Positions 40,764 through 43,192 of a stretch of DNA of 64,000 nucleotides are shown here, piece after piece. The notes beneath the pieces are model-generated. The model did no database searches. It saw only the letters and a list, made by a program, of their open reading frames with translations, and had not been told where the DNA came from. Both the position numbers and the translations under genes were made by a program. The stretch comes from Natronospirales bacterium (GTDB taxonomy: Bacteria; Pseudomonadota; Gammaproteobacteria; Natronospirales; REEB76), in NCBI GenBank assembly GCA_021792635.1, contig JAJYUH010000008.1:1-64000 (forward strand), given 5' to 3'. Within the stretch, counting starts at the first letter, position 1. Every line of letters starts with the position of its first letter.

Positions 40764-41153
40764 CTAGTCTTGCCGGAGCGGTTTCGTTATGTGCGGTTTC
40801 CAGCATCGGGTATGGAAACAGGTCACACGATCGCGATTCCATCGCGCCAAGAATTTGATGGGGCAATCGGCCTGGGGTGCGAAGTCGCGCATAGTGCGGG
40901 GGACAACCGCAAGGCCGTGGACCCGCGCCGTGGCCGCGATAAAAGCATCGCGAATGGGACGGGGATCGGGTACCTGCGGCGCGGCGCTTCTCTGTGCCAC
41001 GGCGGTATCCATTGGCAAAATGCGCTCGGCAAACGCAGGCAGGACGCGTTCATCAAGCCAGGTCCGCAGCAAGACGCCTGGGAGCGCATCGCGTCGCTCC
41101 ATGAGCAAGGTACCGGTTCCAGTTCCTGAACGACAACAACCGAAATAAAAAGA
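40764..41153 (-). pseudogene. vapC: vapC toxin pseudogene, 3' part (split by insertion)
   Basis: The C-terminal two thirds of a VapC PIN-domain ribonuclease. One frame gives LFISVVVVQELE at the break point. After a one-base loss near 41115 the frame continues TLLMERRDALPGVLLRTWLD, AFAERILPMDTAVAQRSAA and PDPRPIRDAFIAATARVHGL to VVPRTMRDFAP. The final residues expected in VapC are missing and an unrelated tail runs to 40764. The N-terminal third lies 1.9 kb away at 43081-43192, and the two halves rejoin in frame when the insertion is removed. Confidence 0.88.
41146..41153. repeat. target-site duplication, left copy (TAAAAAGA)
   Basis: The 8-bp TAAAAAGA here is repeated exactly at 43081-43088 on the other side of the inserted segment. 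It falls within vapC, in the codons for SLF-I. Confidence 0.88.
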
Positions 41154-41507
41154 GCCTCTGTTGAGTTCCGGGGGGTGCCGGTAGGAATCCGTGCCCGCTT
41201 TGGCTGAACCCCTCTGGCAGCCGACCCCCAGTCAGCGGCGTCAAGGCGTGTCCCGTTTCGTCCCGGCGCGGTCGCGGGTACCCGGAGACCCGGCACGCCC
41301 TGGATGCGGATGCCATTGCCGGGATCAGGCAGCGGCACCGGCCGGCTTGCGCGGAATACGCACACACCACCCTTGGATCAGCGGAAAACCGCAAGATCCG
41401 CGGTTTCCTCCCCCCTCCCGGGTGCCAAAGGGACGGGGGTCCATACCGCCTGCAACGCTCGGTTGGGGGGTAGAATCCCCTGCTTCCTTTATCCTGGGGT
41501 GCAAACC

Positions 41508-42953
41508 ATGTCAAAGGGGAAAAAGCTCGGTTTTTCGTTTGTTCTGCGCTGTGCATGCCCGGTTTTCGGCATGGGTATGCTCATCGCCGCCGGGATGCCG
41601 GTTCAGGCGGCTCCCTCTGCCTATGTGGCCAATATCAGCAACACGGTGTCGGTGATCGATACGGCGACCGGTCAGGTGACGGGCTCTCCGATCCCGGTCG
41701 GGAGAGGACCCTTCGGGGTTGCGGTGAGTCCCGACGGCAGCCGCGTATATGTGACCAACCAGTGTGCCAGCAGCAGCTGTACCAACGGCACGGTATCGGT
41801 GATCGATACGGCGAGCGGTCAGGTGACGGGCTCTCCGATCCCGGTCGGGAGTTCCCCCATCGGGGTTGCGGTGAGTCCCGACGGCAGCCGCGTGTATGTG
41901 GCCAATTATGGCGGCAACACGGTGTCGGTGATCGATACGGCGACCGGTCAGGTAACGGGCTCTCCGATCCCGGTCGGGAGCGGACCCTTCGGGGTTGCGG
42001 TGAGTCCCGACGGCAACCGTGTGTATGTGGCCAATGAAAGCGGCACGGTGTCGGTGATCGATACGGCGACCGGTCAAGTGACGGGTTCCCCGATCCCGGT
42101 CGGGAGAGGACCCTTCGGGGTTGCGGTGAGTCCCGACGGCAGCCACGTGTATGTGACCAATAGTGCCAGCGACACGGTGTCGGTGATCGATACGGCGACC
42201 GGTCAGGTGACGGGCTCTCCGATCCCGGTCGGGAGTTTCCCCATCGGGGTTGCGGTGAGTCCCGACGGCAGCCGCGTATATGTGACCAACCAGTGTGCCA
42301 GCAGCAGCTGTACCAACGGCACGGTATCGGTGATCGATACGGCGAGCGGTCAGGTGACGGGCTCTCCGATCCCGGTCGGGAGTTCCCCCATCGGGGTTGC
42401 GGTGAGTCCCGACGGCAGCCGCGTGTATGTGGCCAATAATGGCAGCAACACGGTGTCGGTGATCGATACGGCGAACAACAGCGTCACGACGATCACGGTG
42501 GGGGCTAATCCATACACGCTGGGCGCCTTTGTGGGTCCGGGCGCGCTCATTGCGACCAACAGCAGCGGGAGCGGGATGGAGGGCGAACAGATCAGCGGGA
42601 CGGTTCCCGCCCTGACGAACCCGACCGGCTGCGCGACGTCGGACACTGTCATTCAGGATCCCGCCCACGGCAGTCTCGTCTTCGATTCGGGGACGGGGGC
42701 CTATACCTATACCCCGGCCTCGGCGACCTATGTGGGTGCCGACGCCTTCACCTGGAACGGGACGGCTTCGAGTACCTGCACGGCGGCGGACAATCCGACG
42801 ACTCCGGTGAGTAACGTGGCCACGGTCACGCTGACGGTGGCCCCTGCGACGGGCGGGGGGGGTGGGGCATTGGGGCTGGACTCGCTTTGGATGCTCGGGA
42901 TGGGCCTCCTTTCCAGCCGGAGCCGGCGGAAGAAGCGGTTGAGCCCCGGGTAA
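41508..42953 (+). CDS. secreted seven-repeat YVTN beta-propeller protein with C-terminal sorting-type tail
   Basis: A 481-residue exported protein. After a signal peptide (FGMGMLIAAGMPVQA) come seven near-identical units of about 40 residues (NTVSVIDTATGQVTGSPIPV, GVAVSPDGSRVYVTN). Some carry a CASSSCTNG insertion with a cysteine pair. Then follow an Ig-like segment (TDP-type SLVFDSGTGAYTYTP) and a C-terminus of GGGGG, a hydrophobic helix (LGLDSLWMLGMGLL) and SRSRRKKR, which resembles GlyGly-CTERM-type surface sorting tails. I chose ATG 41508 ahead of MSKGKKLGFSF; the longer frame is out of context. It is probably a surface protein. The ligand is unknown. Confidence 0.85.
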   Translation: MSKGKKLGFSFVLRCACPVFGMGMLIAAGMPVQAAPSAYVANISNTVSVIDTATGQVTGSPIPVGRGPFGVAVSPDGSRVYVTNQCASSSCTNGTVSVIDTASGQVTGSPIPVGSSPIGVAVSPDGSRVYVANYGGNTVSVIDTATGQVTGSPIPVGSGPFGVAVSPDGNRVYVANESGTVSVIDTATGQVTGSPIPVGRGPFGVAVSPDGSHVYVTNSASDTVSVIDTATGQVTGSPIPVGSFPIGVAVSPDGSRVYVTNQCASSSCTNGTVSVIDTASGQVTGSPIPVGSSPIGVAVSPDGSRVYVANNGSNTVSVIDTANNSVTTITVGANPYTLGAFVGPGALIATNSSGSGMEGEQISGTVPALTNPTGCATSDTVIQDPAHGSLVFDSGTGAYTYTPASATYVGADAFTWNGTASSTCTAADNPTTPVSNVATVTLTVAPATGGGGGALGLDSLWMLGMGLLSSRSRRKKRLSPG

Positions 42954-42969
42954 CCCCCTGTCCCGGCAT

Positions 42970-43007
42970 GGTCGTTGAGACGGGGGTTTCCGCCCGTCTC
43001 AACGACC
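42970..43007 (+). terminator. 15-bp perfect hairpin after the YVTN gene
   Basis: GGTCGTTGAGACGGG (42970-42984) pairs fully with CCCGTCTCAACGACC (42993-43007) over an 8-nt loop, 17 bp after the YVTN stop. It is probably the transcript end, although no T-run follows. Confidence 0.75.
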
Positions 43008-43080
43008 CATGGCCCGACCGGCGGATTTCCCGAAGATCCCTCCCCCTATGCCGCCAACCCACTTGCAATTCAACAGGACT

Positions 43081-43192
43081 TAAAAAGACTTGCAGGTGAG
43101 GCTGACCGGATCCAGGCGGTGACCTGCGGTTCGGCCTTGCCGGCTCTTGCCTTACGCAACTCCGATACGACGTTGGTATCGAGGAGGAACAT
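43081..43192 (-). pseudogene. vapC: vapC toxin pseudogene, 5' part
   Basis: ATG 43192 begins MFLLDTNVVSELRKARAGKA, the PIN-domain first strand with the catalytic aspartate. It reaches ASPASLF, where the alignment stops at the 8-bp duplication 43081-43088. Beyond it the frame runs into the insertion (KSC, stop). The start overlaps the phd-like antitoxin stop (TGATG), a normal coupling. The other part is at 40764-41153. Confidence 0.9.

What the first reader, a model, noticed from the sequence alone, without database searches (positions are those of the whole stretch)
41146..43088. Transposase-less element with TSD and inverted ends, carrying a beta-propeller gene, splits vapC
Directly seen: TAAAAAGA at 41146-41153 and 43081-43088; ends CTGTTGAGTT (41158) and reverse-complement CTGTTGAATT (43067); a vapC 5' part (MFLLDTNVVSELRK...ASPASLF) abutting one copy and the continuation (ISVVVVQELE) abutting the other. 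Deleting the segment plus one copy rejoins SLF-ISVVVVQELE in frame. The 1927-bp insert has one gene, a seven-repeat YVTN propeller protein with signal peptide and a GlyGly-CTERM-like tail, and no recognisable transposase. A surface-protein gene moved as cargo by a small TIR element appears unusual.
Basis: partly seen in the sequence, partly recalled or inferred. Interest (0 to 1): 0.88.

Follow-up and report, generated by a model that had tools for sequence, protein, structure and literature searches.

The report
Cargo-carrying insertion cassette inside vapC pseudogene
A 1.9-kb DNA segment carrying one intact cell-surface-type propeller gene, but no transposase, has jumped into an already decaying bacterial toxin-antitoxin gene, leaving the 8-base footprint of a transposition event; such cargo-only cassettes are known, but the cargo here is unusual and only one copy was found.

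Summary
TAAAAAGA flanks 41154-43080 exactly, and the two flanks encode the two parts of one VapC/PIN protein. Natural uninterrupted homologues (L035, L085) run straight through the break, so this is a real insertion with an 8-bp target duplication. The ends are weak imperfect inverted repeats (CTGTTGARTT, 9/10, 4 bp in from each tip). The insert carries one intact gene, a secreted seven-bladed YVTN propeller with a GlyGly-CTERM-like tail, and no transposase. Best read as a non-autonomous transposon with a passenger gene (a "mobile insertion cassette"), placed by a DDE transposase acting in trans.

Corrections: vapC has a separate frameshift and its antitoxin is frameshifted too. The whole 3.2-kb vapBC+insert island is missing from the sister species, so the cassette may have arrived pre-assembled. 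No second copy exists in this genome, nor any close homologue in 368 other genomes of the class; current mobility is unproven. The transposase family is unresolved: IS6-like by the CTGTTG core (GG tips absent, no IS6 transposase found) or ISL3-like by subterminal motifs, A-tract target and ISL3 transposases in the genus. A known kind of element with an unusual cargo.

The parts
41146..41153 (.). left copy of the 8-bp target-site duplication TAAAAAGA (duplicates vapC codons for Leu-Phe)
   Evidence: break point independently fixed by uninterrupted VapC homologues
41154..43080 (+). 1927-bp inserted element (putative non-autonomous insertion cassette)
41154..41181 (+). left end GCCTCTGTTGAGTTCCGGGGGGTGCCGG; inverted-repeat core CTGTTGAGTT at 41158-41167
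43053..43080 (-). right end, read inwards AGTCCTGTTGAATTGCAAGTGGGTTGGC; core CTGTTGAATT at 43067-43076
43081..43088 (.). right copy of the target-site duplication TAAAAAGA
41508..42953 (+). passenger gene: signal peptide, seven YVTN repeats (beta-propeller, residues ~35-335), tandem-95-like region, GlyGly-CTERM-like tail (481 aa)
   Evidence: (TIGR02276, 7 stretches, E 1.5e-78)
42970..43007 (+). perfect 15-bp hairpin just after the passenger gene stop codon; possible terminator without a U run
43082..43192 (-). 5' part of the split vapC (PIN-domain) pseudogene
40875..41155 (-). 3' part of the split vapC; also broken by a frameshift at about 41117
   Evidence: (PF01850, E 0.0022)
43192..43449 (-). 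Phd/YefM-like antitoxin pseudogene upstream of vapC, frameshifted near 43325
40616..43772 (.). lineage-specific island (vapBC remnant plus the inserted element), absent at the same locus of sister genome G008
   Evidence: flanks 90% identical, L036 joins 7655 to 7660

Best explanation
41154-43080 is a non-autonomous DNA transposon with a passenger gene (a mobile-insertion-cassette-type element). SHOWN: it sits exactly at a break in a VapC-family gene, is flanked by an 8-bp direct repeat of vapC sequence, has imperfect inverted ends 4 bp in from each tip, and carries an intact secreted YVTN-propeller gene and no transposase. INFERRED: a DDE transposase supplied by another element (ISL3-like or IS6-like, both of which duplicate 8 bp) recognised the two ends, cut an A-tract target with an 8-bp stagger and inserted the whole unit; gap repair made TAAAAAGA twice. 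The propeller protein would be exported and trimmed or anchored through its GlyGly-CTERM-like tail by a rhombosortase, like other tail-bearing proteins of this host. The vapBC locus was also decaying by frameshifts, so the insertion was probably not selected for killing the toxin.
For: Exact 8-bp duplication at the protein break point; uninterrupted natural VapC homologues in two other bacteria (L035, L085); only such pair of ends and 8-bp duplication in the window; single intact propeller gene and no transposase; gene missing from the sister species and with no close homologue in 368 other genomes of the class, as expected of an acquired segment; other GlyGly-CTERM-like proteins in the host (L011, L012). 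Sampled ISL3 elements also give 8-bp duplications, mostly A/T tracts (GAAAAAAA, CTTTTTCT, AAAAAAAA, TTTTTTTT, ATTCTTTT, TGTTTTTC); comparable 8-mers (7 or more A/T with a 5-base run) make up only 0.18% of the window's 8-mers. ISL3 transposases occur in this genome and in genus-mate G007.
Against: Single copy: no second copy by DNA or protein, so excision or transposition is not demonstrated. The ends are weak: outer 4 bases not complementary, 9/14 overall. No transposase with matching ends was found. The whole island could have been acquired with the insertion already in place.
Confidence: 0.74

Rival explanations
1. The ends belong to an ISL3-family-derived cassette: an ISL3 element lost its transposase and kept or gained a propeller gene, and moves with an ISL3 transposase supplied in trans. 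(A narrower form of the best explanation.)
For: 8-bp A-tract duplication typical of the ISL3 elements sampled here; AGTGGGT at positions 18-24 of the right end, the same position as in both ends of ISL3 elements L095 (genus-mate) and L122; TTCCGGGG in the left end as in right ends of the ISRta1-type elements L126/L127; end-score sum p about 1.5e-4; ISL3 transposases present in the genus; ISL3 elements carry passengers (ISPpu12, PMC4133298; L118).
Against: ISL3 tips start GGNTCTTCG/GGTTC; the ends here start GCCTCTG and AGTCCTG. Against a wider set of ISL3 ends the per-end p is only 0.05 and 0.009, uncorrected and post hoc. Ends of the ISL3 transposase locus in this genome could not be found.
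Confidence: 0.35
2. The ends belong to an IS6/IS26-type cassette that was inserted by cointegrate formation and resolution in trans. (The other narrower form.)
For: CTGTTG at positions 5-10 of both ends, exactly as in the IS6 consensus GGTTCTGTTGCAAA with 8-bp duplication (PMC6807381, PMC7986276); matches 8/14 and 9/14, sum p about 6e-5; IS6-type MITEs exist (PMC7986276).
Against: The GG tip, conserved in nearly all bacterial members and needed for IS26 movement, is absent at both ends (GC, AG). No IS6 (PF13610) transposase above cut-off in 12 genomes of the family, though positive controls rang.
Confidence: 0.2
3. Decayed insertion: an ordinary IS with cargo inserted in vapC and later lost its transposase in place, so it never moved as a transposase-less unit.
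For: Single copy; flanking genes show old decay.
Against: The insert is filled by one intact gene with a 354-bp leader and a 127-bp trailer; no transposase remnant recognised in the leader; duplication and core repeat are still intact.
Confidence: 0.25
4. Pre-assembled acquisition: the 3.2-kb island (vapBC with the insert) entered this lineage as one piece, so the transposition happened in another host. (Compatible with the best explanation; it concerns where, not how.)
For: G008, about 90% identical on both sides, and other genus members lack the whole 40616-43772 stretch.
Against: Independent acquisition of vapBC followed by insertion here fits equally well; no donor found.
Confidence: 0.4

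Closest known systems
Mobile insertion cassettes (MIC/MICE), e.g. the qnrS2 cassette disrupting mpR in Aeromonas IncU plasmids (PMC5444012)
   Same: Non-autonomous, inverted ends, no transposase, carries coding sequence, interrupts a gene
   Different: That cassette has 22-bp inverted repeats and occurs in several plasmids; here the ends are weak, the cargo is a propeller surface-type protein and only one copy is known
TIMEs, Tn3-derived non-autonomous elements (PMC4133298)
   Same: Transposase-less elements with inverted ends in AT-rich targets, some holding core genes
   Different: 38-bp ends and 5-6-bp duplications; here about 10 bp and 8 bp
ISL3 family (L095, L122, L126-L128, L133; ISPpu12)
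   Same: 8-bp A-tract duplications, subterminal AGTGGGT / TTCCGGGG motifs, passenger-carrying members
   Different: No transposase here; tips differ from GGNTCTTC
IS6/IS26 family and its MITEs (PMC6807381, PMC7986276)
   Same: 8-bp duplication, CTGTTG at positions 5-10
   Different: GG tips missing, no transposase in the family genomes

Membership tests
Mobile insertion cassette (non-autonomous, gene-carrying IS derivative) | Flanking target-site duplication | tested here: met
   8-bp TAAAAAGA at the vapC break
Mobile insertion cassette (non-autonomous, gene-carrying IS derivative) | Terminal inverted repeats related to a known IS | tested here: inconclusive
   core 9/10 but tips unmatched; ISL3 and IS6 fit about equally
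Mobile insertion cassette (non-autonomous, gene-carrying IS derivative) | Passenger coding sequence, no transposase | tested here: met
Mobile insertion cassette (non-autonomous, gene-carrying IS derivative) | Mobilisation in trans by an IS transposase | not testable with these tools
   needs an experiment; the indirect sign, repeated copies, was looked for and not found
ISL3 | 8-bp duplication | tested here: met
   sampled ISL3 elements likewise 8 bp
ISL3 | Tips GGNTCTTC / GGTTC | tested here: not met
   tips GCCTCTG and AGTCCTG
ISL3 | DDE_Tnp_ISL3 transposase (PF01610) inside the element | tested here: not met
   none in the element; present elsewhere in the genome
IS6/IS26 | GG at both tips, G at position 7 | tested here: not met
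   G7 present at both ends, GG absent
IS6/IS26 | IS6 transposase (PF13610) | tested here: not met
   none in the element; none above cut-off in 12 genomes of the family
GlyGly-CTERM / rhombosortase substrate | Gly-rich motif, hydrophobic stretch, basic end at the C terminus | tested here: inconclusive
   tail ...TGGGGGALGLDSLWMLGMGLLSSRSRRKKRLSPG fits by eye; no GlyGly-CTERM model hit in NCBIfam
GlyGly-CTERM / rhombosortase substrate | Rhombosortase gene in the same genome | not tested

The most novel reading that the evidence does not exclude
A family of small trans-mobilised cassettes shuttles exported YVTN-propeller genes with sorting tails between sites and hosts, so a surface repertoire is spread by transposition in the way resistance genes are.
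Probability: 0.12. Interest if true: 0.65.

Novelty: new variant of a known kind. Interest (0 to 1): 0.36.

Why it matters
If it moves, it is a cassette whose passenger is a cell-surface-type propeller rather than a resistance gene, giving one route by which fast-changing surface proteins appear in a single lineage. The 194-bp exact internal repeat suggests that the cargo is also evolving quickly by blade duplication. It is a single example, so its weight depends on finding more.

Tried and rejected
Second copies of the element, by DNA, protein and end pattern: none. Other CTGTTGARTT sites in the own genome, and those of the family that were fetched as loci, show no partner end with an 8-bp duplication. 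Leader matches in four genomes are short chance matches in coding sequence. The IS1-like transposase at C13 (L048) and the IS1595 elements have unrelated ends (e.g. GGTAATTAGGGCG, GGCGATTATCC for IS1595). Phages: no DNA match for the element. Plasmids: no DNA match for the leader, and only generic propeller repeats by protein. Rfam: nothing. Viral contigs gave only distant propellers (33-41% identity). The two vapC pieces were searched apart and never joined.

Full report
OBSERVATION. The sequence shows TAAAAAGA at 41146-41153 and 43081-43088, with the inverted pair CTGTTGAGTT (41158-41167) and CTGTTGAATT (43067-43076, minus strand), each 4 bp inside the proposed tips. Exact 8-bp repeats at this spacing are common (11,434 pairs 300-5000 bp apart in the window), so the repeat alone proves nothing. 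The proof is the gene it interrupts. The minus-strand protein of 43192-43082 aligns to the start of a VapC toxin that is uninterrupted in another bacterium (L035:3860-4297). The minus-strand protein from 41155 downwards continues at the next residues of the same VapC, with Leu-Phe encoded twice. A second uninterrupted homologue (L085) gives the same picture. The duplication is therefore a genuine 8-bp target-site duplication around a 1927-bp insert.

CORRECTION. The vapC gene is not otherwise intact. Its 3' part changes frame at about 41117, and the Phd-like antitoxin upstream is frameshifted near 43325. In sister genome G008, whose DNA is about 90% identical on both sides, position 40615 joins directly to 43773. 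The other genus members that could be compared have only about 0.3-1 kb between the same flanking genes, and no vapBC there. The locus is thus a lineage-specific island containing a decaying toxin-antitoxin remnant, and the insert sits inside it. Whether the insertion happened here or in a donor cannot be told.

CONTENT. The only gene in the insert is 41508-42953: signal peptide, seven YVTN repeats (TIGR02276, E 1.5e-78), a tandem-95-like stretch (weak, E 0.017) and a GlyGly-CTERM-like tail (by eye). AlphaFold2 from the single sequence gives a confident propeller for about residues 35-335 and low confidence elsewhere. Blades are nearly identical and a 194-bp stretch is repeated exactly. No transposase was found. 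Two other proteins of this genome have related C-terminal repeats and the same kind of tail (L011, L012), so the host plausibly has the sorting system; the rhombosortase itself was not searched.

COPIES. No second copy by DNA or protein in this genome. Among the relatives (95 genomes, own included) the DNA search found only short repeat-type matches, and no homologue at E 1e-60 or better was found in the 368 other genomes sampled from the class (only a few candidates per genome were scored). Plasmids hold only generic propellers; the leader has no match in plasmids and the element none in phages.

WHICH TRANSPOSASE. Two families that duplicate 8 bp fit partly. IS6: CTGTTG lies at positions 5-10 of both ends as in GGTTCTGTTGCAAA, but the GG tips, conserved and required in IS26 (PMC6807381), are absent, and no IS6 transposase was found in the family. 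ISL3: elements in genus-mate G007 (L095) and in Manganitrophus (L122) have AGTGGGT at positions 18-24 of both ends, as does the right end here. Right ends of ISRta1-type elements (L126, L127) contain TTCCGGGG, as does the left end here, shifted by 2 bp. ISL3 duplications sampled here are mostly A/T tracts, like TAAAAAGA. The end scores are of similar strength for both families (sum p 1.5e-4 and 6e-5), post hoc, and the two ends are not independent. Against a wider set of ISL3 ends the match is modest (p 0.05 and 0.009). I lean to ISL3-like on the target preference and the presence of ISL3 transposases in the genus, but do not file it as a member.

MECHANISM. Most likely a transposase supplied in trans acted on both ends and inserted the segment with an 8-bp stagger (inferred). 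This is the established behaviour of mobile insertion cassettes and TIMEs (PMC5444012, PMC4133298, PMC10969869). The present state may be immobile.

VERDICT. A real, well-bounded insertion of a known kind with an unusual passenger, in a single copy. Interesting as a lead, not yet as a system.

Noticed in passing
41713-42437: The propeller gene holds a 194-bp exact internal repeat (starting at 41713 and 42244), a sign of very recent blade duplication or conversion, or of an assembly artefact.
   Followed up: partly
42970-43007: Perfect 15-bp hairpin (8-nt loop) right after the propeller gene's stop codon, without a U run.
   Followed up: no
L118:225-2919: An ISL3 element of Pseudomonas putida plasmid pKF715A carries an AbiEii-like nucleotidyltransferase gene between its ends, with an 8-bp duplication: a cargo-bearing ISL3 element.
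   Followed up: partly
L126, L127, L128, L133, L122, L118 element borders: 8-bp duplications of sampled ISL3 elements are mostly A or T tracts, suggesting a target preference.
   Followed up: partly
L121 and L125, 1-2800: ISL3-type transposase gene directly next to mercury-resistance genes merR-T-P-F in Halomonas and Paracoccus plasmids; element ends not found.
   Followed up: no
L011, L012: Two further large repeat proteins with GlyGly-CTERM-like tails elsewhere in this genome.
   Followed up: no
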